Of a DNA stretch of 64,000 nt, positions 27,471 to 39,288 are shown in pieces. A model generated the notes under the pieces. The model saw only the letters and a program-made list of their open reading frames with translations, searched no databases and was not told where the DNA came from. This DNA comes from Herbiconiux sp. VKM Ac-1786. GTDB taxonomy: Bacteria > Actinomycetota > Actinomycetes > Actinomycetales > Microbacteriaceae. The stretch is from contig NZ_JADKSG010000002.1 of assembly GCF_015350805.1 (NCBI RefSeq), positions 1,364,001 through 1,428,000 on the forward strand. Reading direction: 5' to 3'. Numbering within the stretch: the stretch's first letter is position 1; every line of letters begins with the position of its first letter. The position numbers and the translations under genes were made by a program.

Positions 27471-28840
27471 CGCTGCTCCTCCAGTCGGGTGTCGATGAGG
27501 GTGGCGGGGGTGCCGCCTGTGGGGCTCGCGGTCGCGGCGTCGGCGGGCAGCTCCTCGGGGATGAAGCGCAGCCGGTCGAGCCGCAGCCCGTCGACGCGCT
27601 CGACCCGCAGCACGCCGCCGTCGATGCCGATCTCGTCGCCGAGCTCGGGCAGCCGGTCGAGCTCGTCGATCACGTAGCCGGCGACGGTCTCGTGATCCTC
27701 CTCGGCGGGCACGCGGATGCCCGTGCGGGCCTGCAGCTCGTCGGGCCGAAGGCTCGCGTCGAACGTGATGGAGCGTCCGGTGCGCACGATGCCCGCGCGC
27801 AGGCGGTCGTGCTCGTCCTCGAGCTCGCCGACGAGCTCCTCCACCAGGTCCTCCAGGGTGACGATGCCGGCCGTTCCGCCGTGCTCGTCGGTCGCGATCG
27901 CGATCTGGAAGCCGTTGCGGCGGAGAAGGCCGAGCAGCGTGTCGATGCCCATCGACTCGGGCACGAAGAGCGGGTCGACCATGAGCTCGGAGACGGGGAC
28001 GGCCTGCCGGGCATCCGGATCGATGCCGAAGCCCTGCTTGACGTGCACGACGCCGACGATGTCGTCGACACTGGTGCCCGTGACCGGGAAGCGCGAGAAG
28101 CCGGTGCGCTGCGCGAGCGCCACGACGTCGGCCGCGGTGTCGTCGGGGGTGACGCTCGCCATGCGCACGCGCGGTGTCATGACGTCGGCCGTCTCGCGCT
28201 CGGAGAAGGTGAGGGTGCGGCCGAGCAGCGTCGCGTGGTCGGTGTCGAGCATGCCCTCGAGGGCGGAGCGGCGCACGAGCGAGCCGAGCTCCTCGGCCGA
28301 GCGGGCGCCCGAGAGCTCCTCCTTCGGCTCGATGCCCATCGCGCGGATGAGGGCGTTGGCCGTGTTGTTGAACAGCAGGATGACCGGCTTGAAGATCGTC
28401 GTGAAGACCACCTGGAACGGCACGACGACCTTCGCGGTCTGGCGGGGCAGCGCCAGCGCGAAGTTCTTCGGCACGAGCTCGCCGATGACCATCGAGAACA
28501 GCGTGGCGATCAGGATGCCCAGCACCGCCCCGATGCCGGGAACGACACCCTCGGGGATGCCGACGCCGATCAGCGGCTCGCGGAGGAGCGACGAGATGGC
28601 GGGCTCGAAGGTGTAGCCCGTGAGCAGGGTGGTGAGGGTGATGCCGAGCTGCGCGCCCGAGAGGTGGGTCGAGGTGATGCGCAGGGCGGAGATGGTGGGG
28701 CCGAGCCGCTTCTCGCCGCGCGCCTGGCGCTGCTCGAGGTCGTGGCGGTCGAGGTTCACGAGGGCGAACTCGCTGGCCACGAAGAACCCGGTGCCGACGG
28801 TCAGCACGAGGCCGATCGCGAGCATGGTCAGCTCATACAA
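27467..28840 (-). CDS. CNNM/CorC-like membrane protein with C-terminal CorC_HlyC domain
   Basis: A 457-residue paralogue of the next gene, with DUF21 helices (FFVASEFALVNLDRHDLEQ, VIGELVPKNFALALP), a CBS pair (VMTPRVRMASV, FSRFPVTGTSVDDIVGVVHVKQ, DEHGGTAGIVTLEDLVEELVGE) and a CorC_HlyC domain near the C-terminus (LDELPEL-type region). TTG 28840 is chosen because AGGGGG sits seven bases upstream; ATG 28825 is the alternative. It is the first gene of a two-gene operon. Two unequal paralogues in tandem are typical of actinobacteria. A C-rich tract (about 28983-29013) and no gene occupy the upstream 235 bases. Confidence 0.88.
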   Translation of the reverse strand: MYELTMLAIGLVLTVGTGFFVASEFALVNLDRHDLEQRQARGEKRLGPTISALRITSTHLSGAQLGITLTTLLTGYTFEPAISSLLREPLIGVGIPEGVVPGIGAVLGILIATLFSMVIGELVPKNFALALPRQTAKVVVPFQVVFTTIFKPVILLFNNTANALIRAMGIEPKEELSGARSAEELGSLVRRSALEGMLDTDHATLLGRTLTFSERETADVMTPRVRMASVTPDDTAADVVALAQRTGFSRFPVTGTSVDDIVGVVHVKQGFGIDPDARQAVPVSELMVDPLFVPESMGIDTLLGLLRRNGFQIAIATDEHGGTAGIVTLEDLVEELVGELEDEHDRLRAGIVRTGRSITFDASLRPDELQARTGIRVPAEEDHETVAGYVIDELDRLPELGDEIGIDGGVLRVERVDGLRLDRLRFIPEELPADAATASPTGGTPATLIDTRLEEQR

Positions 28841-29075
28841 GGGTGGGCCCCCTGCGGATGAGCACGCGGGCTGCACCGTCGTGGTGAGCGCCGTGGTTCA
28901 GGTCGGCAAGGGGCACGGGCCTGTGATGAGGGGGGTCGTCCATGCCCTCAATCGTACCGGACCCTCCTGGAAAACCCCCTGGACCCCGCCCCCACCCCCC
29001 GCCCCCACCCCCTCGGGGTCGCGCAAAGGCCCCTTCGTTCCGCGCCGGAGGGACTTCTGCGCGACCCGGGCGCCC

Positions 29076-29426
29076 TCAGGGGCGCTGCGCGCGCGGGAGG
29101 TTCGCGACCACGAGGTCGTAGGAGTTGACGATCAGGTCGAACACGAGCTCGCCGTCGGAGTCGGGGCCGAGCGTCACCGTCACCCAGTGGCGCTTGTTCA
29201 TGTGGTAGCCCGGCCGGATGTACGAGTGGTCGCGCACGAGCGCCTCGCCGTGCGCGGGGGCGACCTTGAGGGTGACGCTCTCGACCTCGGAGTCGAGCGG
29301 GGTGAGGGCGAAGACCTTGCCCACGACCTTCGCCACCGCGGTCTCGGGCCCGAACGGGCGCTCGTCGGTGGTCGCGGGCAGGGCGGCGCAGGCCTCGAGC
29401 ACGTCGGCGCGGCGGGTGATGACCAT
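29076..29426 (-). CDS. MmcQ/YjbR family protein
   Basis: A 116-residue single-domain protein of the MmcQ/YjbR (CyaY-like fold) family. It shows the typical PFGPETAVAKVVGKVFAL segment, the VTLKVAP strand, and the C-terminal YHMNKRHWVTVTL and SYDLVVANLP pieces. The family has a double-wing DNA-binding-like fold, but its function is unproven. ATG 29426 is the only plausible start. It is a lone gene, divergent from the lipoprotein gene at 29518. Confidence 0.9.
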   Translation of the reverse strand: MVITRRADVLEACAALPATTDERPFGPETAVAKVVGKVFALTPLDSEVESVTLKVAPAHGEALVRDHSYIRPGYHMNKRHWVTVTLGPDSDGELVFDLIVNSYDLVVANLPRAQRP

Positions 29427-29517
29427 GAGGGCACGCTAGCGCGAACCCCCGACACGAGCATCCGCCCGGCAATTCGACAGCTGTGCAAGGATGGGCCCAC
29501 GACCGAAGGAGGCCGCC

Positions 29518-29955
29518 GTGCCGAGTCCGCCCAGCCGCCTGCTCGTCGGGCTCACCCTCGTCGCCGCGGCCGCGGTGCTGACCGGATGCACACCGGCGGT
29601 CGACTCGATCGACGCCCTCGAGGCGTACCAGCGCGAGCAGACCGACGCCGACCTCGTGCCGGCCGACGTCGACGGATCCGTGCTCGACGCGGTCGACCCG
29701 TCGTCGACGCGCCTCCTCGCGGAGGTCGACGGCACGACGATCTACGCCGCGAAGCCGGCCGCGGGCGACCCCACCATGGACGGCAGCGGCGCCTGCCTCG
29801 TGCTCGTCTCGTCGCAGCCGATGGCGGGCTGCGGCAGCCGCCTGCCCGTCACCGTCTCGGGCCCCGGCCCGAACGAGTACTCCCTCTCCCCCCGGATGCC
29901 CGACGACGAGGGCTGGACCGAGGTCGTCGACGGCCTCTGGAGCCGCCCGAAGTAG
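29518..29955 (+). CDS. Small secreted lipoprotein, unknown function
   Basis: A 145-residue lipoprotein. The signal peptide is PPSRLLVGLTLVAAAAVL with lipobox LTGC. The mature part is acidic and contains two more Cys (ACLVL and GCGS) that may form a disulfide, and it ends in LWSRPK. GTG 29518 has the Shine-Dalgarno AAGGAGG. It is anchored outside the membrane. I recognise no family. Confidence 0.75.
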   Translation: MPSPPSRLLVGLTLVAAAAVLTGCTPAVDSIDALEAYQREQTDADLVPADVDGSVLDAVDPSSTRLLAEVDGTTIYAAKPAAGDPTMDGSGACLVLVSSQPMAGCGSRLPVTVSGPGPNEYSLSPRMPDDEGWTEVVDGLWSRPK

Positions 29956-29987
29956 GGCCGACGCCGCCGATGCGGTTGGATGGGGGC

Positions 29988-30584
29988 ATGTCGACGACGA
30001 TGCCCGCCCTGACCGATCTCGAGTGGAGCCGCGGGGAGGGTGAGGCGGCCGTCGACGGCGGCACCCTCACGCTGACCGCCGCGGCCGGCACCGACTGGAC
30101 CAACGACGCCGGCGGCGCCGAGCCCCAGCACCGCGCCACGAGCCTCGGTTTCGTTCCCGAGGGCGACTTCCGCCTCTCGGCCCGCGTCCGCGTCGAGGGC
30201 GCGCGCAGCACCTTCGACGCCGGCGTGCTCGCGATCTGGGTCGACGAGACGCACTGGGCGAAGATCTGCTTCGAGTGGTCGCCGCAGGGCACGGCGATGG
30301 TCGTCAGCGTCGTCACGAACGACTTCTCCGACGACGTGAACTCCACCGACGTCCACGGCGACGCCGTGTACCTCCGGGTGTCGCGGGTCGGGCCGGCGTG
30401 GGCGTTCCACTCCTCGGCCGACGGTGTCGAGTGGCGCTTCGTGCGGGTCTTCCGGCTGGCGGGCGCGGGGCCGGTACACGTCGGCTTCCTGGCCCAGGCG
30501 CCGCTGGGCGAGAGCTGCACGGCGGTGTTCGACGAGATCGCGCTCGTGCCCGGCACGCTCGGCGAGCTGCGCGACGGGTCGTAG
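29988..30584 (+). CDS. DUF1349 concanavalin-like protein
   Basis: A 198-residue beta-sandwich protein of the DUF1349 family. It shows LTLTAAAGTDWTNDAGG near the start, FDAGVLAIWVDETHWAKICFEWSPQG in the middle, YLRVSRVGPAWAFHSSADGVEWRFVRVFRL and the C-terminal VGFLAQAPLGE. The fold resembles lectin/glucanase sheets, and a carbohydrate ligand is plausible but unproven. There is no signal peptide. ATG 29988 is chosen; ATG 29970 would add six residues. Confidence 0.85.
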   Translation: MSTTMPALTDLEWSRGEGEAAVDGGTLTLTAAAGTDWTNDAGGAEPQHRATSLGFVPEGDFRLSARVRVEGARSTFDAGVLAIWVDETHWAKICFEWSPQGTAMVVSVVTNDFSDDVNSTDVHGDAVYLRVSRVGPAWAFHSSADGVEWRFVRVFRLAGAGPVHVGFLAQAPLGESCTAVFDEIALVPGTLGELRDGS

Positions 30585-30640: not shown

Positions 30641-31576
30641 GTGACGCTGTTCAACGGCTGGGCCGTTCCCGCCGACCTCGACGACCTGCTCAAGCACTCG
30701 GTGCTCGACGACGATGACGACGACCCGGTGCTGCTCGGCACCGACGGCGCGCCCGTCGACACCTGGCGCGAGGGCTATCCCTACGACGAGCGCCTCGACC
30801 GCGCCGACTACGAGGCGGGCAAGCGCCTGCTGCAGATCGAGCTGCTGAAGCTGCAGAACTGGATCAAGCTGCACGGCCGCCGCCTCGTGATCGTGTTCGA
30901 GGGCCGCGACGCCGCCGGCAAGGGCGGCACGATCAAGCGCTTCACCGAGCACCTGAACCCCCGGGGCGCCCGGGTCGTGGCGCTCGAGAAGCCGACCGAG
31001 CGCGAGTCGGGGCAGTGGTACTTCCAGCGCTACGTGCCGCACCTGCCGGCCGCGGGCGAGATGGTGCTGTTCGACCGCTCCTGGTACAACCGCGCGGGCG
31101 TCGAGCGCGTGATGGGCTTCTGCACCGACGAGCAGTACGACGAGTTCATGCGCCAGGCCCCGCTGTTCGAGAGCATGCTCACGGGTGACGGCATCGACCT
31201 CGTGAAGCTCTGGTTCTCGGTCTCGGCCGACGAGCAGCGCACCCGCTTCGCCATCCGCATGGTCGACCCGGTGCGGCAGTGGAAGCTCTCGCCGATGGAC
31301 CTCGAGTCGCTCGACAAGTGGCAGCGCTACACCGACGCGAAGGAGGCGATGTTCGCGGCGACCGACACCGCCGACGCCCCCTGGACCGTGGTCAAGAGCA
31401 ACGACAAGAAGCGCGCCCGCCTCGAGGCGATGCGCCACGTGCTGAGCCTCTACGACTACGACGGCAAGGACGACTCGATCGTCGGCCGGCCCGATCCGCT
31501 GATCGTGGGCTCGGCCGCCGACGTGTACGAGCGTGGCGAGAACGAGGCCCAGGCGCCGGGCGGGGTGCCCCGGTGA
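30641..31576 (+). CDS. ppk2: Polyphosphate kinase 2 (PPK2)
   Basis: A 311-residue PPK2 enzyme that transfers phosphate between polyphosphate and nucleoside di- or monophosphates. Walker A is EGRDAAGKGGTIKR (about residue 86), the lid region contains PTERESGQWYFQRY, and Walker B is VLFDRSWYNRAGVERVMGF. GTG 30641 lies six bases after a TACGGT -10 box, giving a leaderless start. An acidic run (LDDDDDDP) precedes the catalytic domain. It overlaps the phosphopantetheinyl transferase start by GTGA, so the two are coupled. It could recycle adenylates used by the adjacent adenylation enzyme; that is inference. Confidence 0.94.
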   Translation: MTLFNGWAVPADLDDLLKHSVLDDDDDDPVLLGTDGAPVDTWREGYPYDERLDRADYEAGKRLLQIELLKLQNWIKLHGRRLVIVFEGRDAAGKGGTIKRFTEHLNPRGARVVALEKPTERESGQWYFQRYVPHLPAAGEMVLFDRSWYNRAGVERVMGFCTDEQYDEFMRQAPLFESMLTGDGIDLVKLWFSVSADEQRTRFAIRMVDPVRQWKLSPMDLESLDKWQRYTDAKEAMFAATDTADAPWTVVKSNDKKRARLEAMRHVLSLYDYDGKDDSIVGRPDPLIVGSAADVYERGENEAQAPGGVPR

Positions 31577-32349
31577 CCCCGCAGGTGCACGTGCGCTGGG
31601 TGCCGCTGCCCGCATCAGGCGACGGGGCGCCCGACGTCGAGGCCCTGCTCCCCCTGCTCAGCGACGAAGAGCGGATGCGCGCCGTCACCACCCCCGACCC
31701 CCACGTCGCGGCGCGATTCGTGCTCGGGCGCATCGCCGTGCGGCACCTCGCGGCCGAGCTCGCCCGCCCCGCCCCGGGCGCCGAGGCACCGACGCCGGAC
31801 GAGGTCACCGTCTGGGCGCTCTGCCCCGACTGCGGCGGACCGCACGGACGCCCCCACGTCGACGTGCGGAAGCCCAAGGGCCGGCCGCTCAGCGTCAGCA
31901 TCGCGCACTGCGCCGCCGGCGTAGTGGTCGCGGCGAGCTGGTCGGGCACCGTCGGCATCGACGTGGAGCTCGCCGACACCCCGGTCGAGGCGATGGCCGC
32001 GATCGCCGCGCTCGTGCCCCCGGCCGCCCGGCCGTCCGGCCGCTCCTGGGACCCGGTGCAGCACTGGACGCGCATCGAGGCCGTGCTGAAGGCCGACGGC
32101 CGCGCCCTCCGCGTCGACCCCTCGGCCGTGCTCCTCCGCCGCGACGCGGGAGCCCTCACCGCCACGATCGCGGGCGATCCCCCGCGGCCCGAGGGCGAGG
32201 CGGAGCCGGTCTACGCCGTGGCCGACCTGCGCCTGGACGACGCGGTACGGGCATCCGTCGCCGTGCTGCCGCGGAAGCCCTCGGCCAAGCCGACCGTGCC
32301 CGTGGTCACCTGGCGGCCGCTCGACCTCGTCGCCCCCTCCCCGGTCTAG
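31573..32349 (+). CDS. 4'-phosphopantetheinyl transferase
   Basis: A 258-residue Sfp-type transferase that moves phosphopantetheine from CoA to a serine of carrier proteins. Seen are the CPDCGGPHGRPHV motif, the SIAHCAAGVVVAAS strand, the magnesium-binding GIDVELAD (Asp about 129) and the late WTRIEAVLKADG helix (the WxxKEA-type motif, with Ile-Glu in place of Lys-Glu). It starts inside the PPK2 stop. It converges on the M1-Pls operon with only three bases between stop codons, so the natural client is probably the Pls carrier domain encoded there. Confidence 0.88.
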   Translation: MTPQVHVRWVPLPASGDGAPDVEALLPLLSDEERMRAVTTPDPHVAARFVLGRIAVRHLAAELARPAPGAEAPTPDEVTVWALCPDCGGPHGRPHVDVRKPKGRPLSVSIAHCAAGVVVAASWSGTVGIDVELADTPVEAMAAIAALVPPAARPSGRSWDPVQHWTRIEAVLKADGRALRVDPSAVLLRRDAGALTATIAGDPPRPEGEAEPVYAVADLRLDDAVRASVAVLPRKPSAKPTVPVVTWRPLDLVAPSPV

Positions 32350-32352
32350 GCG

Positions 32353-33663
32353 TCAGGGCAGGGGCGGGAGGGGCGTGGCGTGCAGCCACGCCGCGAACAG
32401 GGGCGCCACGGGACGGGCCGAGACCGAGTGCGCGAGCGCCACGAACGCCGGGGTGTCGGCGCTGCCATGGCGGTGCTCCGCCGTCCAGGTGCGCAGCAGC
32501 TCGAAGAACGTCGCGTCGCCGATCGTCAGGCGCAGCGCGTGCAGCGTGAGCGCTCCGCGCTTGTACACGCGGTCGTCGAACATCGCCACCGGTCCGGGGT
32601 CGGCGACCACGAGGTCCTGCGGGGCGGCGGCCAGCATCCGATGGTGCTCGCGCGCCAGCGCATCCGCCGGTGGCCCGCCCCGCTCCTCCGACCACAACCA
32701 CTCGGCGTAGCAGGCGAAGCCCTCGTTCAGCCAGATGTCGCGCCAGGCCTTCACGCCCACGCTGTTGCCGAACCACTGGTGCGCGAGCTCGTGCGCGATC
32801 AGCCGGTCGCTGCCGTGCCGTCCGTCGACGTGATTCGCCCCGAAGATGGCCATCGCCTGCGCCTCGAGCGGGATCTCGAGCTCGTCCTCGGTCACGACCA
32901 CGGCGTAGCGGGAGAACGGGTACGGCCCGAAGACCCGGGAGAAGAAGCCGATCATCTCCGGCAGCTGCGCGAGGTCCGTGTCGACCCGCGCCTGCAGCTC
33001 GGCCGGGTAGTAGCGGTCGACGGGCACGGCACCCCGGCTCGACCGCACCGTGTAGCGCCCGATCTGCACGGTCGCGAGGTACGCCGAGGTCGGAGCATCC
33101 TGTTCGTAGAGCCAGCTGCTGCGCCCGCTGCGGCCCGTGCGCTCGACGAGCCGCCCGCTCGCGGCCACGGTGTAGCCCTCCTCGACGGTGACGCGGAGGC
33201 GGTAGGCCGCCTTGTCCTCGGGCCGGTCGTTGCACGGGAACCAGGTCGACGAGCCGATCGGCTGCGACGCCGTGAGCACGCCGTCGGTGAGCTCCTCCCA
33301 CCCCAGCGGCCCCCAGGTGCTGCGCCGGGGGCCCGGCCGCCCGCCGTACTCGACCCGCACCGTGAAGCGCTGCCCGGCCGGGATCGGCGAGGCCGGCCGC
33401 ACCGACAGCACGTGCGAGCCCTGCGAGACCCGCGCCGGCCGGGCGCCGTCGACCTTCACCTTCGAGGCCTTGAGCTTGGAGAGCCCGAGGTCGATGCGGT
33501 CGAGGTCGACCACCGCCACCGCCGTGATCACGGCGACCCCGTCGAGCCGGTTCGTCTCGACCCGGTAGTCGAGGTCGAGGTCGTAGTGCTCGACCCGGTA
33601 CGACCAGGTGCCGACGCCCGGCGTGTAGGGGTCGCCCGAGAAGGCGACGCCGCGCCCGGTCAC
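32353..33663 (-). CDS. M1-family zinc metallopeptidase
   Basis: A 436-residue gluzincin aminopeptidase. The zinc site is HELAHQWFGN (about residues 288-297) with the third ligand in NEGFACYAEWLW 19 residues on. The substrate N-terminus loop reads PLEAQAM in place of GAMEN, as in actinobacterial M1 members. The N-terminal beta domain starts with VEHYDLDLDYRVE. There is no signal peptide or membrane helix. GTG 33663 overlaps the Pls stop by four bases, so it is made together with the synthetase. In epsilon-poly-lysine producers the degrading enzyme is a zinc aminopeptidase, which suggests a trimming or self-protection role here. Confidence 0.9.
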   Translation of the reverse strand: MTGRGVAFSGDPYTPGVGTWSYRVEHYDLDLDYRVETNRLDGVAVITAVAVVDLDRIDLGLSKLKASKVKVDGARPARVSQGSHVLSVRPASPIPAGQRFTVRVEYGGRPGPRRSTWGPLGWEELTDGVLTASQPIGSSTWFPCNDRPEDKAAYRLRVTVEEGYTVAASGRLVERTGRSGRSSWLYEQDAPTSAYLATVQIGRYTVRSSRGAVPVDRYYPAELQARVDTDLAQLPEMIGFFSRVFGPYPFSRYAVVVTEDELEIPLEAQAMAIFGANHVDGRHGSDRLIAHELAHQWFGNSVGVKAWRDIWLNEGFACYAEWLWSEERGGPPADALAREHHRMLAAAPQDLVVADPGPVAMFDDRVYKRGALTLHALRLTIGDATFFELLRTWTAEHRHGSADTPAFVALAHSVSARPVAPLFAAWLHATPLPPLP

Positions 33664-36600
33664 GAGCCGTCCCGAGCGGCCAGGGCGTCCGGCGCCGGCG
33701 CGGCGTTCCGGCCCCCCAGCGCCGCCCACCGGTACTCGGCCGTGCGCACCTCGCGCCAGGGCCCGATCGGGTTGCCGCTCCAGCGGCTGCCCGCGGGCAC
33801 CGTGTCGCCCCGCATCACGAGCGAGGCGGGGCCCACCGTGCCGTCGGCGGCGATCCGCGCGGCGGGCAGGATGACGCTGTGCGGGCCGAGGGTCGCCCCC
33901 CGGTCGAGGTCAACGGTGTCGAGACTCATGATCCGATCATGGAACAGATGCGTCTGAACCACACATCCCCGGTTCACCGTCGACGCGTCGGCGAGGGTGA
34001 CGAGGTCGGCCTCGGGCAGCCAGTACGTCTCGCACCAGACGCCCGTGCCGATCTTCGCGCCGAGGCTGCGCAGCCACCAGACGAGCGCCGGGGTGCCGGT
34101 CGCGGCCTGCGCGAACCAGGGCGCGGCGACCATCTCGGTGAAGGTGTCGGCGACTTCGCTCCGCCAGACGAAGCTCGACCAGAGCGGATGCTCGCCCCGC
34201 CGGATCCGCCCGATCAGCACCCACTTCGCCACCGTGCTGACCCCCGCGGCCACCGCTCCGGCGACCAGCAGCACGACCCCGCTCAGCACCACCGCGAGCC
34301 ACAGCCCCACGGAGGCGAGCGCCGCGAGCGCGAACACGACCCCCAGGCCGATCGCGCAGGTGACGATCACGGGGATCACGCGCAGCAGCTCCCACAGGAT
34401 GCGCGCGACCCGCAGCCGCGCGGGCGGCGAGAAAGTGCGGCTGAGGTCGCCCTCCGCGGCCGTGCGGCGCAGCCGCACCGGCGGCGAGCCGAGCCACGAC
34501 GAGCCGTTCTTGGCCTTCCGGGGCGCCGACGAGAGCACGGCGACGAGGCCGTCGCGCGGCACCCGGTGGCCCGGCGCCGCCATGCCGGAGTTGCCGAGGA
34601 AGGCGCGTTCGCCGATCTCGGCGCGGGCCACGTGCATCCAGCCCCCGCCGAGCTCGTAGGAGGCCACGAGGGTGTCGTCGGCGAGGAAGGCCCCGTCGCG
34701 CACCGTCGTCATGGCCGGGATGAGCAGCACCGTCGACGCCTCGACGTCGCGCCCGATGCGGGCACCGAGCAGCCGCAGCCAGACCGGCGTGAACAGCCCC
34801 GAGTAGAGCGGGAACAGCAGCGTGCGGGCCTGGTCGAGCAGCCGCTCGGTCGACCAGATCTGCCAGCCGACCCGCCCCCGCACCGCGTGCACGCCCTCGG
34901 TGACCCCGAGGCCGAGCAGGCGCGTGAGCGCCACGACGAGCACGGCCAGCACGACACCGGCGACGAGCGTGCCGGGCACCACCGCAGCAAGGCTCCGCAC
35001 GGCCGCGTCGCCGAGGTCGGCGGCTCCGCGGGCGGCCGCCAGCACCACGAGCGCTCCGGCCGCGAGCGCGACGACGGGCACCAGCGCGAGCACGATCGAC
35101 GACAGCCCGTAGGCGATCAGCCAGGCGGGGCGGCGGGCCGGGCGCTCCTCGGGCCACCAGCCGCGGGCCTTGCCGACGCGGGCGGCGGGCGAGCCGGCCC
35201 AGCGCTGACCCGACGGCACCCGCCCGAACACCGAGGAGCCCGGGTCGATCTCGGCGCGCTTGCCGATCCGGGTGCCGGGCAGCAGCGTGCTGCGCGCGCC
35301 GATGCTGGAGCCCGCCCCGATGCGCACCGCGCCGACCCGCAGCACGTCGCCGTCGACCCAGTAGCCCGAGAGGTCGACCTCGGGCTCCACGGCGGCGCCC
35401 CGGCCGATCGTCAGGAAGCCGGTCACGGGCGGCAGCGCGTGCAGATCGACGTCGTCGGCGATCCGGGCGCCGAGCGCGCGGGCGTAGAGCGCGATCCAGG
35501 GCGCCCCCGCGAGGCTGACGGCCCCCACCTGGTGCGCGATCTGCTCCGCGAGCCAGAGCCGCAGGTGCCACGAGCCGCCGCGGGGATGATCGCCCGGCTC
35601 CAGCCCGCGCAGCAGCAGCCGCGACGCCAGCACCGAGATGCCCATCCGGCCGAACGGCGTGGCGAACAGCAGCAGCCCGACGATCAGCAGCCAGAGCGGC
35701 ACGGTCGGCAGCCAGTCGAAGCCGCCGAACGGCACGAGGATCGCGGAGGCCGTGAACAGGTAGACCAGCCAGCGCAGCCCGGCGAGCACGAACAGCGGGA
35801 TGCCGAGCACCGTCTGCAGCACCTGCATGCGCCGCGGGGTGGGCGCGACCGGCTCCCGGCCCGGCCCGGCCGGGGTGCCCGCGGCATCCGCTTCGTCGGA
35901 GCGGGAGCGCAGCTCGTCGGCCATCGCGCCGAGCCGCGGGTGCGCGTAGACGTCGGCGACGGTGAACTCGGGGTCGATCTCGCGCACGCCCGCGACGAGC
36001 TGGGCGGCCGCGAGCGAGCCGCCGCCGAGGTCGAAGAAGTTCGAGCGGTCGTCGGTGACGGAGGCGCCGAGCACCCCCGTCCAGAGGGCGGCGAGCCGCG
36101 CGGTGAAGGGGTCGTCGATCGCGGGGGCGTCGCCGTCGCCGATCGGCGCCGCGCCCGGAAGCGGCCACGGCAGCGCCTTCTTGTCGACCTTGCCCGAGAC
36201 CCGCACGGGCAGCTCGTCGAGCACGGCGATCAGCGGCACGAGCGCGGCGGGCAGCTCCTCGCGCAGGCGCGCGACGGCGGCCTCGCGGTCGAATCCGGGC
36301 GCCACGACGTAGCCGACCAGCATCGCGGTGCCCGCCGCGGTCTGCTGCACGGTGACGGCGGCGCCCGCGACGCCCGGCAGCGCCTGCAGCGCGGCCTCGA
36401 TCTCGCCGAGCTCGATCCGCCGGCCGCCGACCTTCACCTGGTCGTCGGCCCGGCCCTGGAAGACGAGCCCCTCGGGGTCGTAGCGCACGAGGTCGCCTGA
36501 GCGGTAGGCGCGCTCCCAGCCGAGTGACGGCATCGGCGCGTACTTCTCGGCGTCCTTCGCGGGGTCGAGGTAGCGGGCGAGCCCCACTCCCCCGATGATC

Positions 36601-37673
36601 AGCTCTCCGGATGCTCCGGGCGCCACCGGCTCGCCGTTCTCGTCGACCACCGCCAGCTCCCAGCCGTCCAGCGGCAGCCCGATACGCACGGGGCCGTCGC
36701 CGCCGAGCGGGGCGGCGCAGGCGACGACGGTCGCCTCGGTGGGGCCGTAGGTGTTCCAGACCTCGCGGCCCGGGGTGGCGAGCCGCTGGCCGAGCTCGGC
36801 CGGCACCGCCTCGCCGCCGAAGATCAGCAGGCGCACGTTCTCGAGCGACTCGGCGGGCCAGAGCGCGGCGAGCGTGGGCACGGTCGAGACGACCGAGATG
36901 CCGCGAGCGGTGAGCCAGGGCCCGAGGTCCATGCCGCTCCTCACGAGCGAGCGCGGGGCGGGCACGAGGCAGGCGCCGTGCGCCCAGGCGAGCCACATCT
37001 CCTCGCACGAGGCGTCGAAGGCCACGGACAGGCCGGCCAGCACGCGGTCGCCGGGGCCGAGCGGCTCGTCGACGACGAACAGGCGCGACTCGGCGTCGAC
37101 GAAGGCGGCGGCCGAGCGGTGGCTGACGGCGACGCCCTTCGGGGTGCCGGTCGATCCCGAGGTGAAGATGATCCAGGCGTCGTCGGCCGGCGTGGGCGGC
37201 GAGAGCACGGGCAGGCCCGCCGTGCTCGGGTGGGGGTCCCGGGCATCCGCGTCGACCAGCAGCACCTCGGCGGCCGGCGCCGTTCGGGGGCGGTAGCGCA
37301 GGGCGCCGGTGAGCACGCCCACCACGTCGGCCTCGCCGAAGACGAGCTCGGCGCGCTCCTCGGGGTCGTCGACGTCGACCGGCACGTAGGCCGCCCCGGC
37401 CGCGAGCACCGCGAGGATGCCGACGTACAGCTCGCGGTGACCCGAGGCCATCCGCACGCCCACCCGGTCGCCCCGGCGCACACCGGCGGCGTGCAGCTCG
37501 GCCGCGACGGCGATCACCCGGGCCATCAGCTCGCGGTAGCTCAGCGCGCCGTCGCCATCGTCGAGGGCCGAGGCCTCCGGATGCGCGGCGACGGTCTCCC
37601 GCAGGATGTCGACGAGCGTGCGGGCCGGAGCGGCCAGCGCGCTCCGGTCGAGCGTGGGCTGCGCGGTGGTCAT
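33660..37673 (-). CDS. Pls/PosA-family nonribosomal peptide synthetase
   Basis: A 1337-residue membrane synthetase. Residues 20-510 are an adenylation domain (FTSGSTGTPKGVAVSH, NTYGPTEATVV, YRSGDL, GRADDQVKVGGRRIELGE, SGKVDKKALP). A carrier domain follows, with DLGGGSLAAA (Ser553). From about residue 620 to the end are six hydrophobic helices around soluble lobes carrying hexapeptide-type turns (IGARSTLLPGTRIGKRAEID). There is no thioesterase. This order and length match epsilon-poly-L-lysine synthetase, which builds a homopolymer iteratively. The pocket residues read by eye are D-A-E-S-I-G-T-V-V-K, close to lysine codes such as the one I recall for bacitracin synthetase. It lies behind dgt and is coupled to the M1 gene. 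Confidence 0.92.
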   Translation of the reverse strand: MTTAQPTLDRSALAAPARTLVDILRETVAAHPEASALDDGDGALSYRELMARVIAVAAELHAAGVRRGDRVGVRMASGHRELYVGILAVLAAGAAYVPVDVDDPEERAELVFGEADVVGVLTGALRYRPRTAPAAEVLLVDADARDPHPSTAGLPVLSPPTPADDAWIIFTSGSTGTPKGVAVSHRSAAAFVDAESRLFVVDEPLGPGDRVLAGLSVAFDASCEEMWLAWAHGACLVPAPRSLVRSGMDLGPWLTARGISVVSTVPTLAALWPAESLENVRLLIFGGEAVPAELGQRLATPGREVWNTYGPTEATVVACAAPLGGDGPVRIGLPLDGWELAVVDENGEPVAPGASGELIIGGVGLARYLDPAKDAEKYAPMPSLGWERAYRSGDLVRYDPEGLVFQGRADDQVKVGGRRIELGEIEAALQALPGVAGAAVTVQQTAAGTAMLVGYVVAPGFDREAAVARLREELPAALVPLIAVLDELPVRVSGKVDKKALPWPLPGAAPIGDGDAPAIDDPFTARLAALWTGVLGASVTDDRSNFFDLGGGSLAAAQLVAGVREIDPEFTVADVYAHPRLGAMADELRSRSDEADAAGTPAGPGREPVAPTPRRMQVLQTVLGIPLFVLAGLRWLVYLFTASAILVPFGGFDWLPTVPLWLLIVGLLLFATPFGRMGISVLASRLLLRGLEPGDHPRGGSWHLRLWLAEQIAHQVGAVSLAGAPWIALYARALGARIADDVDLHALPPVTGFLTIGRGAAVEPEVDLSGYWVDGDVLRVGAVRIGAGSSIGARSTLLPGTRIGKRAEIDPGSSVFGRVPSGQRWAGSPAARVGKARGWWPEERPARRPAWLIAYGLSSIVLALVPVVALAAGALVVLAAARGAADLGDAAVRSLAAVVPGTLVAGVVLAVLVVALTRLLGLGVTEGVHAVRGRVGWQIWSTERLLDQARTLLFPLYSGLFTPVWLRLLGARIGRDVEASTVLLIPAMTTVRDGAFLADDTLVASYELGGGWMHVARAEIGERAFLGNSGMAAPGHRVPRDGLVAVLSSAPRKAKNGSSWLGSPPVRLRRTAAEGDLSRTFSPPARLRVARILWELLRVIPVIVTCAIGLGVVFALAALASVGLWLAVVLSGVVLLVAGAVAAGVSTVAKWVLIGRIRRGEHPLWSSFVWRSEVADTFTEMVAAPWFAQAATGTPALVWWLRSLGAKIGTGVWCETYWLPEADLVTLADASTVNRGCVVQTHLFHDRIMSLDTVDLDRGATLGPHSVILPAARIAADGTVGPASLVMRGDTVPAGSRWSGNPIGPWREVRTAEYRWAALGGRNAAPAPDALAARDGS

Positions 37674-37731: not shown

Positions 37732-39288
37732 TCAGCTGCCGAAGGCCCAGGGTTCGCGGTCGCCGCGGAGGCGCGAGGCGAGGGCGGTCGCCTGCTCGTC
37801 GGTGAGCGAGGCGACGTAGTCCAGGATGCCGCGGGCCCGGCCGAAGCGTGCCAGCGCGACCGGGTCGGTGGTCGGGCGGCCGGAGCCCGGGGCGTCGGCG
37901 TCCTCGGGCAGCCACTCGGGCGCATCCGCCCGCAGCCGGAAGTACCCGTCGGTGGCGAGCTCGACGAAGTCGAGCAGCTTCTGCGGCGCCCGGGCGCCGT
38001 CGCGCGGGTCGTCGAGCCAGGAGTCGAGCTCGGTGACGAGGGTGTCGAGCACCCGCGCCTGGCCGCGCTGGTAGGTGGCGAAGTCGGGGCGGTCGATCAC
38101 GAAGCGGGTGTGCACGAACTTCAGCACGGTCACGTCGTGCCAGGCGTCGGGCAGCAGCGACACGTGGCCCGAGCGCACGTTCGGGTCGGCGAGCACGAGC
38201 ACCGAGCGCTGCAGGCGGCCGATCCACGACGACACGAACGACTCGATCGCCCGCTCGGTCTGGCTCGAGCCGTCGAAGGGCACGGCGAGCAGGCCCTCCA
38301 CGAGCTCGGTCGCGACCCGCTGCACCGAGGCGCGGAAGATCTCGTCGCTGGCGATCCACGGGTCGCGGGAGACGATCCGACGGCGCAGCAGCTCGAGGGA
38401 GTGCCCGGGCATCCGGTTCCACAGCTCCTCGGCGTCGAGCGCGGCGAGCGCCGTCTGCTCGCGCAGGAAGGTGCGGAACTCGACCGCGACGGCCGCCTGC
38501 TGCAGCACGCCCGCGCGGTAGAAGTCGTCGAGGTCGTGCAGGGAGTAGGCGATGTCGTCGGCGACGTCCATCACCGAGCACTCGACGGTCTGCTGCCAGG
38601 GGGCGATCGCGTCGAAGCCGCGGCGCGCGTCGAGCAGGTCGGCGAGGTCGAGGCTGTAGGCCGAGAACTTCGGCGGGGCGGTCTCCCAGCGGCTGGCGGT
38701 GGAGCCGCGGGGCAGGCGGGTGGGGTCGTCGGAGTCGATCTCGGGGCGGCAGAGGGTGCGGCCCCACGGGTACTTCAGCACGGCGGCGCGGGAGGCCGCG
38801 GTGAGGTTCAGGCCCTCCTCCACGGTCTCGCAGACGTCGAGCACCGAGAGGATGCGGAACGACTGCGCGTTGCCCTCGAAGCCCTCGGCGAGCCCCAGGC
38901 GGTCGCGGGCGAGCCGGTCGAGCACCTGCTCGCCGAGGTGCCCGAACGGCGGGTGGCCGAGGTCGTGGGCGCTGGCGGCGGCCTGCACCACGACCGGGTC
39001 GCAGCCGCCGAGCCGGTCGACGAGCTCCCGCTGGGCGGCATCCGTCGTCGTCAGCTGCATCGCGATGGCGCGGGCGACCGCGGTGACCTTGATCGAGTGG
39101 GTGAGCCGGTTGTGCACGACCTGGCCGACGCCCGACGGCGAGATCACCTGGGTCACGGCCGAGAGCCGGGCGAAGTAGGGCGAGAAGCGGATGCGCTCGA
39201 GATCGACCCGGTACTCGGGGAACTCCTCGCCCGTGGCGAAGCGGTCGACGGGTTCGGCGATGCGTCGCCGGCGGCGGTTCTCGTCCAT
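37732..39288 (-). CDS. dgt: Deoxyguanosinetriphosphate triphosphohydrolase-like HD protein
   Basis: A 518-residue HD-domain enzyme that splits dNTPs to deoxynucleosides and triphosphate. Metal ligands are seen in THSIKVTAVARAIA, SAHDLGHPPFGHLGEQ (the HD pair, with Asp-His-Pro-Pro-Phe-Gly-His) and VMDVADDIAYSLHDLDDF. The basic N-terminus MDENRRRRRIAEP is usual for the family. It ends 58 bases before the Pls start on the same strand, so the two may share a transcript, though no functional link is known. It is divergent from the DUF4397 gene. Confidence 0.93.
   Translation of the reverse strand: MDENRRRRRIAEPVDRFATGEEFPEYRVDLERIRFSPYFARLSAVTQVISPSGVGQVVHNRLTHSIKVTAVARAIAMQLTTTDAAQRELVDRLGGCDPVVVQAAASAHDLGHPPFGHLGEQVLDRLARDRLGLAEGFEGNAQSFRILSVLDVCETVEEGLNLTAASRAAVLKYPWGRTLCRPEIDSDDPTRLPRGSTASRWETAPPKFSAYSLDLADLLDARRGFDAIAPWQQTVECSVMDVADDIAYSLHDLDDFYRAGVLQQAAVAVEFRTFLREQTALAALDAEELWNRMPGHSLELLRRRIVSRDPWIASDEIFRASVQRVATELVEGLLAVPFDGSSQTERAIESFVSSWIGRLQRSVLVLADPNVRSGHVSLLPDAWHDVTVLKFVHTRFVIDRPDFATYQRGQARVLDTLVTELDSWLDDPRDGARAPQKLLDFVELATDGYFRLRADAPEWLPEDADAPGSGRPTTDPVALARFGRARGILDYVASLTDEQATALASRLRGDREPWAFGS

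What the first reader, a model, noticed from the sequence alone, without database searches (positions are those of the whole stretch)
30641..37673. Candidate poly-basic-amino-acid locus: Pls/PosA synthetase with M1 peptidase, phosphopantetheinyl transferase and PPK2
Seen: a 1337-residue adenylation-carrier-membrane protein with no thioesterase, a coupled M1 zinc peptidase (GTGA), and a coupled PPK2-phosphopantetheinyl transferase pair converging on it with three bases between stops. Known: epsilon-poly-L-lysine synthetase has this architecture, and its degrading enzyme is a zinc aminopeptidase. Inference: the four genes make, prime and trim a cationic homopolymer, and PPK2 recycles the AMP/ADP from the adenylation step. 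PPK2 next to a polycation enzyme is an unusual pairing and may also link polyphosphate (polyanion) to polycation storage.
Basis: partly seen in the sequence, partly recalled or inferred. Interest (0 to 1): 0.85.

Follow-up and report, generated by a model that had tools for sequence, protein, structure and literature searches.

The report
Polylysine synthase locus with dedicated activator
This is a known kind of bacterial gene pair, one enzyme that should make the antimicrobial polymer epsilon-polylysine and one that should trim it, here joined by the gene for its likely activating enzyme and, in a few relatives only, by a polyphosphate kinase whose link to the polymer is unproven.

Summary
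The four genes are real and lie where described. Pls (33660-37673, -) is an epsilon-poly-L-lysine (ePL) synthetase homologue. It scores 722 bits on TIGR02353 (cut-off 423), its A domain is 63.5% identical to the solved ePL synthetase (7WEW), and its ten-residue substrate code (DAESIGTVVK) is identical. An M1 peptidase lies downstream on the same strand in 102 of 102 related loci. This matches the published pls-pldII arrangement, so the core is known. The convergent protein is an Sfp-type phosphopantetheinyl transferase (PPT). All 59 Pls-positive genomes among 150 family members carry it, 54 within 5 kb of Pls. The host genome shows only two carrier proteins and two PPT-family genes, so this PPT most likely primes Pls. 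My limited literature searches found no description of that association. PPK2 is different: a listed match lies beside Pls in 4 of 59 Pls genomes (plus one outside locus). The linked copies form one clade, so the linkage probably arose once, and close relatives, including one of the same genus, lack it. It is class I-like (ADP rather than AMP), which weakens the AMP-recycling idea.

The parts
33660..37673 (-). Pls: epsilon-poly-L-lysine synthetase homologue (A domain about 25-501, carrier Ser553, C-terminal Pls/PosA domain 618-1303)
   Evidence: TIGR02353 722 bits, AA-adenyl 356 bits; 7WEW 620 bits, 63.5% identity; code DAESIGTVVK and Ser553; hydrophobic stretches in three groups at 618-682, 849-928, 1089-1155
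32353..33663 (-). M1 zinc peptidase in the pldII position, predicted ePL-degrading/trimming enzyme (436 aa, two Pfam M1 domains)
   Evidence: PF01433 and PF17900 over cut-off; nearest solved structure 6a8z; HExxH and WLxEG residues in 83 of 84 aligned rows, one row gapped; same strand, downstream of Pls in 102 of 102 loci
33660..33663 (-). 4-bp GTGA overlap of the Pls stop and the M1 start
   Evidence: sequence; a 4-bp overlap start is possible in 55 of 102 related loci
31573..32349 (+). Sfp-type 4'-phosphopantetheinyl transferase, predicted to prime the Pls carrier domain
   Evidence: profile hit to Sfp 1qr0 E 6.3e-15; fold match to 4mrt; invariant G128, D130, W165, E169, K173; only PPT-family match in the genome besides an AcpS-like one
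30641..31576 (+). Class I-type polyphosphate kinase 2; lineage-specific neighbour, role in the locus unproven
   Evidence: TIGR03707 377.7 bits, cut-off 301.8; 5ll0 E 8.6e-107; beside Pls in 4 of 59 Pls genomes plus L003

Best explanation
The locus is an actinobacterial epsilon-poly-L-lysine module. PPT loads phosphopantetheine onto Ser553 of the Pls carrier domain. The Pls A domain adenylates L-lysine with ATP, releasing PPi and later AMP, and hands it to the carrier. The C-terminal membrane domain joins lysines through alpha-carboxyl to epsilon-amino bonds without a thioesterase. The co-translated M1 peptidase (PldII position) hydrolyses the polymer, setting chain length and protecting the producer. 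PPK2 is a lineage-specific passenger of the PPT transcription unit and is not an established part of the pathway. Shown here: gene content, code identity, conserved gene association and motifs. Inferred from characterised homologues: the chemistry. Not shown: expression or product.
For: Family and domain scores. A domain nearest to ePL synthetase 7WEW, with the same ten-residue code in 7WEW, the window and 102 relatives (104 of 104 rows). Asp, Ala and Glu at code positions 1-3 are those that PMC10522769 ties to lysine-activating enzymes (sections 8, 9, 14 read). M1 beside Pls in 102 of 102 loci, including four loci from genomes of 8.9-9.9 Mb in another family (L126-L129). PPT is found in 59 of 59 Pls-positive and 10 of 91 Pls-negative genomes (Fisher p 1.1e-31, not corrected for kinship), within 5 kb in 54 of 59. 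The genome shows only two PP-binding carriers at E 0.001 or better (a 94-aa frame and Pls) and two PPT-family genes at E 1 or better (an AcpS-like 121-aa frame and this one). Published: pldII is coupled to pls in S. albulus (PMC9223678, PMC4361855, passages), and the pls of a Corynebacterium pls-peptidase operon made ePL in S. coelicolor (PMC8117764, Results read).
Against: No product, transcript or activity can be tested here, and C. variabile itself made no ePL in culture (PMC8117764), so such loci may be silent. The window M1 has no strong hydrophobic stretch (highest 19-residue hydropathy 1.62), whereas PldII is reported outside the membrane (PMC9223678). PMC9223678 models PldII with two zinc ions at residues that do not look like the single HExxH...E site of M1 enzymes (the M1 site is recalled); the S. 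albulus PldII sequence was not held, so the link from this M1 to PldII rests on position and on both being called zinc (amino)peptidases. PPT is not within 5 kb of Pls in 5 of 59 Pls genomes, and was not found near Pls in 42 of 42 loci outside Micrococcales (one of them, L044, ends at M1) nor in four Micrococcales ones, nor in L124 of the same order.
Confidence: 0.84

Rival explanations
1. PPK2 is a functional part of the module: it regenerates ATP from ADP with polyphosphate, together with adenylate kinase for the AMP made by the A domain, to power ePL synthesis.
For: PPK2, PPT, M1 and Pls stay together in five loci (window, G011, G045, G116, L003), although no flanking window gene was matched in the last three. 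The five PPK2s form one clade (99/96) with the same branching as their Pls. All 12 sample genomes with a PPK2 at least 77% identical also have Pls. Expressing ppk2, or pap with ppk2, raised ePL yield in engineered S. albulus (PMC10012588, passages).
Against: Only 4 of 59 Pls genomes have a listed PPK2 match within 20 kb of Pls; the next nearest is 34 kb off. Eight of the 12 genomes with the close PPK2 have it away from Pls, including a member of the same genus, G093. Five close Pls relatives in the same 10-row clade lack it there. The 12 of 12 co-occurrence is partly a genome-size effect (36 of 48 genomes of 3.5 Mb or more with a printed size have Pls; p 0.018, kin genomes). Class I enzymes prefer diphosphates (PMC8776046, passages).
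Confidence: 0.13
2. PPK2 links polyphosphate and polycation storage, for example as polyP-polylysine granules.
For: Adjacency only, plus the general fact (recalled) that polyanions bind polycations.
Against: ePL is secreted in S. albulus (PMC9223678, passage) while PPK2 has no hydrophobic stretch (highest 19-residue hydropathy 0.79). The acidic stretch at its N-terminus is also in the eight close PPK2s not linked to Pls.
Confidence: 0.03
3. The synthetase makes a different cationic homopolymer, or activates another diamino acid.
For: The family includes poly-ornithine, poly-Dab, poly-Dap and poly-beta-lysine synthetases (PMC10522769).
Against: All ten code residues equal those of 7WEW, position 2 being Ala as in lysine enzymes rather than Met or Phe (PMC10522769). 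An adjoining peptidase gene is the context of the lysine enzymes and not of the other three synthetases compared in PMC8117764.
Confidence: 0.06
4. The PPT serves some other carrier, and its place beside Pls is a family-level accident of gene order.
For: Relatedness inflates the co-occurrence statistics; 10 Pls-negative genomes carry a PPT of this profile.
Against: Only two carriers and one other PPT-family gene were found in the genome. The PPT stays beside Pls in two geometries (50 convergent downstream, 4 upstream on the same strand) and in three Micrococcales families (34 of 38 such loci).
Confidence: 0.05

Closest known systems
S. albulus pls-pldII operon (ePL synthetase and ePL-degrading enzyme II)
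   Same: Pls with the same A-domain code as 7WEW (its S. albulus origin is recalled); peptidase gene directly downstream on the same strand with a 4-bp overlap (PMC4361855, PMC9223678, passages)
   Different: Here a PPT converges on the pair and a PPK2 precedes the PPT. No PPT was found within the fetched flanks of the four large-genome loci L126-L129. The window M1 is 436 aa against a 1404-bp pldII (PMC9223678).
Corynebacterium variabile pls-peptidase operon (PMC8117764)
   Same: Synthetase-peptidase operon in a coryneform actinobacterium; the synthetase made ePL in S. coelicolor. That paper also reports Pls homologues in Microbacterium and Arthrobacter.
   Different: The main text of that paper does not contain the word phosphopantetheinyl.
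PosA, delta-poly-L-ornithine synthetase of Acinetobacter baumannii (PMC10522769)
   Same: Same A-carrier-terminal-domain architecture, same Asp and Glu pocket residues
   Different: Code position 2 is Met in PosA, Ala here; PosA (8g95) matches the window A domain far less well than 7WEW (205 against 620 bits)
Engineered PPK-mediated ATP regeneration in S. albulus (PMC10012588)
   Same: Pairs an ADP-to-ATP PPK2 with ePL synthesis
   Different: Man-made, with a separate polyP:AMP phosphotransferase for the AMP step; here the pairing is natural, lineage-restricted and untested

Membership tests
Pls/PosA synthetase family (TIGR02353) | C-terminal Pls/PosA domain over the curated cut-off | tested here: met
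   722.3 bits against 423.1, residues 618-1303; only match over the cut-off in the genome
Pls/PosA synthetase family (TIGR02353) | Adenylation plus carrier domain with active-site Ser; no condensation or thioesterase domain | tested here: met
   PF00501, PF13193, PF00550 found, no C or TE family listed; Ser553 in 83 of 84 rows, one gapped
Pls/PosA synthetase family (TIGR02353) | Six transmembrane helices in three pairs | tested here: inconclusive
   Hydropathy shows hydrophobic stretches in three groups; no dedicated topology prediction was run
epsilon-poly-L-lysine synthetase | A-domain pocket of a lysine-activating Pls | tested here: met
   DAESIGTVVK, identical to 7WEW
epsilon-poly-L-lysine synthetase | Makes epsilon-linked lysine polymer | not testable with these tools
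   needs expression and mass spectrometry
PldII-type ePL-degrading peptidase | Zinc peptidase gene directly downstream of pls | tested here: met
PldII-type ePL-degrading peptidase | Direct homology to S. albulus PldII | not tested
   PldII sequence not held; large-genome loci L126-L129 carry the same M1 family in that place; the two-zinc model of PMC9223678 sits badly with an M1 site
PldII-type ePL-degrading peptidase | Hydrolyses ePL | not testable with these tools
   enzyme assay needed
Sfp-type phosphopantetheinyl transferase | Sequence profile and fold of the Sfp group | tested here: met
Sfp-type phosphopantetheinyl transferase | Pfam ACPS gathering score | tested here: not met
   16.6 bits against 25; the single sequence is divergent, profile and fold decide
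PPK2 class I | Over the PPK2_P_aer (TIGR03707) cut-off and nearest to class I structures | tested here: met
   377.7 against 301.8; 5ll0, then 3czq and 6dzg. That 5ll0 is from F. tularensis and 3czq/6dzg from S. meliloti is recalled; PMC8776046 (passage) names both organisms' enzymes as class I
PPK2 class I | Phosphorylates ADP/GDP and not AMP | not testable with these tools
   enzyme assay needed

The most novel reading that the evidence does not exclude
In one lineage of Microbacteriaceae, evolution has attached a polyphosphate-driven ATP regenerator (class I PPK2) to an ePL synthetase and its dedicated PPT: a natural counterpart of the ATP-regeneration cassette that engineers added to S. 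albulus, in which polyphosphate pays for secreted polycation.
Probability: 0.13. Interest if true: 0.6.

Novelty: new variant of a known kind. Interest (0 to 1): 0.36.

Why it matters
ePL is a food-grade antimicrobial. The locus adds to the evidence that many Microbacteriaceae carry a compact ePL module (59 of 150 sampled genomes have Pls), and shows that in Micrococcales the likely priming enzyme travels with the synthetase. That PPT may be a missing piece for expressing Pls in other hosts and a marker for finding working loci. The PPK2 neighbour gives a cheap natural test of whether polyphosphate fuels ePL synthesis.

Tried and rejected
PPK2 as a conserved part of the locus: rejected by neighbourhood counts (4 of 59). 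That count uses the PPK2 matches printed, whose list stops near 95 bits; 10 of the 59 Pls genomes have no printed PPK2 match. Class I-like PPK2 (270 bits or more) and Pls occur together in 33 of 150 genomes, with 26 Pls only, 28 PPK2 only and 63 neither (p 0.002, no kinship or genome-size control). The close PPK2 orthologue occurs only in Pls genomes (12 of 12, p 6.5e-6), but a size control leaves p 0.018 on kin genomes, so I give it little weight. The size control used the 48 genomes of 3.5 Mb or more printed; the table leaves out 20 genomes.

N-terminal acidic stretch of PPK2 as a polycation-binding adaptation: rejected, because it is shared with the eight close PPK2s not linked to Pls.

Translational coupling PPK2-PPT and the three-base convergence as signs of function: not conserved.

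A fifth conserved gene in the locus: a clustering of flank ORFs of 110 aa or more in 49 Micrococcales loci found no family in more than 15 loci, with Pls, M1, PPT and PPK2 masked. The shared flanks there look like local synteny.

Pfam alone for the PPT was inconclusive; resolved by profile and fold.

Literature: searches (1 paper, passages seen; 5 papers, listing; 10 of 226 listed) showed no paper describing a PPT beside pls; one search (14 papers, listing; one read in passages) showed no natural PPK2-pls pairing. The library lacks most subscription journals, so this is weak evidence of absence. The founding PldII paper (PMC2935060) was not held. One search returned unrelated aminopeptidase papers.

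Full report
OBSERVATION. All four genes are present at the stated coordinates. PPK2 and PPT run on the + strand, M1 and Pls on the - strand. Both pairs are joined by GTGA overlaps, and three bases separate the converging stops. Pls scores 722 bits on TIGR02353, cut-off 423, and is the only protein over that cut-off in the 3.89-Mb genome.

WHAT PLS IS. The best solved relative of the A domain is ePL synthetase 7WEW (620 bits; 63.5% identity over 513 columns; its S. albulus origin is recalled). PosA, the ornithine enzyme, scores 205 bits. The ten pocket residues read DAESIGTVVK. The same code is found in 7WEW, the window and the 102 other Pls aligned (104 of 104 rows; the mapping to the ten standard positions is recalled). 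PMC10522769 (sections 8-11, 13, 14 read) shows that Asp and Glu at positions 1 and 3 bind the two amines, and that Ala at position 2 goes with lysine enzymes where PosA has Met and poly-Dap enzymes have Phe. The carrier Ser553 is conserved. Pfam lists no condensation or thioesterase domain, as in published Pls.

M1 PEPTIDASE. From the 80 genome contigs relatives (capped list of the best 80 of at least 593), 3 loci and 19 (the twentieth, L141, repeats G045), M1 follows Pls on the same strand in 102 of 102. The longest gaps are 2172 bp (L027), 631-675 bp (L036, L038, L050, L051) and 370 bp (L133); a 4-bp overlap start is possible in 55 of 102. Left out of the count were the PPK2-centred loci without Pls (L116-L123) and the short loci L001, L002 and L083-L112. 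Zinc-site residues are intact in 83 of 84 rows, the other being gapped. This is the published pls-pldII layout: in S. albulus the two genes overlap by 4 bp and form one operon (PMC4361855, passage), and pldII repression gave longer ePL and a less tolerant producer (PMC9223678, passages). In C. variabile a synthetase-peptidase operon was described and its synthetase made ePL in S. coelicolor (PMC8117764, Results and Discussion read). That paper already reports Pls homologues in Microbacterium, Arthrobacter and others. The core finding is therefore known. Two points do not fit smoothly: PldII is reported outside the membrane while this M1 shows no strong hydrophobic stretch, and PMC9223678 models PldII with two zinc ions at residues unlike an M1 site. 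The PldII sequence was not held, so this could not be settled.

PPT. Single-sequence Pfam was weak (16.6 bits). An alignment of 28 PPTs, all taken from Pls loci (25-65% identical to the window's), finds Sfp at 6.3e-15. The AlphaFold model (mean pLDDT 91.4) has 32 matches at E 0.001 or better, all of them PPTs of the Sfp size class. Among the 80 relatives, a PPT lies within the fetched flanks in 34 of 38 Micrococcales loci (Microbacteriaceae, Micrococcaceae, Intrasporangiaceae, by record title; L081 by its place in the tree) and 0 of 42 others. The four misses are L004, L006, L007 and L026, the last near a contig end; L044 among the 42 ends at M1. Of the loci, L124 (same order) and L139 (same family) also lack it nearby. 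In 150 family genomes, Pls (E 1e-150 or better) is in 59 and PPT (E 1e-4 or better) in 69. All 59 Pls genomes have the PPT, against 10 of 91 without Pls (p 1.1e-31, kinship not corrected; the two searches are taken to cover the same 150 because their handles recur). PPT is within 5 kb of Pls in 54 of 59: 50 convergent downstream, 4 upstream on the same strand. The host genome shows two carriers only, one in a 94-aa frame (presumably the fatty-acid ACP) and Pls, and two PPT-family genes only, an AcpS-like 121-aa frame and this one. By elimination this PPT most likely primes Pls. Searches showed no paper describing this association, within a library that lacks most subscription journals.

PPK2. 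The protein is class I-like. Class I enzymes phosphorylate diphosphates, and PA0141 has no detectable AMP activity; the C. glutamicum class I enzyme strongly prefers polyP synthesis (PMC8776046, passages). Its neighbourhood with Pls is rare: 1 of the 80 relatives (L003) and 4 of 59 Pls genomes in the family sample (G000, G011, G045, G116, at 2.1-2.3 kb; next nearest 34 kb, listed matches only). The other eight genomes with a close PPK2 (77-82% identical) carry it away from Pls, among them G093 of the same genus. The five linked PPK2s form one clade (99/96). Their Pls lie in a ten-row clade (SH-aLRT 99, quick method) that also holds five unlinked loci (G026, G034, G109, G134, L004), and the branching order of the linked loci is the same in both trees. 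One gain with later losses is the simplest reading. Flanking window genes were matched only in G011 among the linked loci, so the four genes stayed together while flanks changed, which is mild evidence for retention. Engineers raised ePL yields in S. albulus by adding PPKs (PMC10012588, passages), so an ATP-regenerating role is conceivable, but nothing here singles it out from hitch-hiking.

MECHANISM. PPT primes Pls; Pls adenylates lysine and polymerises it at the membrane; M1 trims or clears the polymer. These steps are inferred from characterised homologues plus conserved association; no step is shown for this organism.

VERDICT. A known kind of locus (pls-pldII) in a variant with a co-travelling, probably dedicated PPT across Micrococcales and a lineage-specific PPK2 passenger. 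Interest is moderate and lies mainly in the PPT association.

Noticed in passing
G004, G087, G035, G110 and L016:7348-7962: In these loci the PPT lies upstream of Pls on the same strand instead of converging on it, so the pair has been rearranged at least once while staying together.
   Followed up: partly
G007, G076, G090, G096: Pls matches come in two pieces in these family members, which may be gene decay, frameshifts or assembly faults.
   Followed up: no
L031, L040, L047, L048, L053, L058, L060, L063, L064, L066, L124: In these eleven Micrococcaceae-like loci several flank ORF families are shared, including a protein that looks ArgC-like by eye.
   Followed up: no
window 28620-30584 (+): A 654-aa protein with a C-terminal DUF1349 domain ends 56 bases before PPK2 on the same strand; in the same-genus relative L113 only its residues 8-122 and 153-287 are matched, about 1.5 kb apart.
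   Followed up: partly
window 37735-39288 (-): An HD-domain protein lies directly upstream of Pls on the same strand; of the 14 loci compared it was matched only in L113.
   Followed up: partly
L027, L036, L038, L050, L051: In these Tsukamurella and Williamsia loci the Pls-M1 gap opens to 0.6-2.2 kb, room for an inserted gene that was not examined.
   Followed up: no
G014, G016, G017, G019, G056, G079, G130, G133, G135, G142: Ten family genomes carry a PPT of this profile without a Pls match at E 1e-150; they may hold other carrier-protein pathways or relics of Pls.
   Followed up: no
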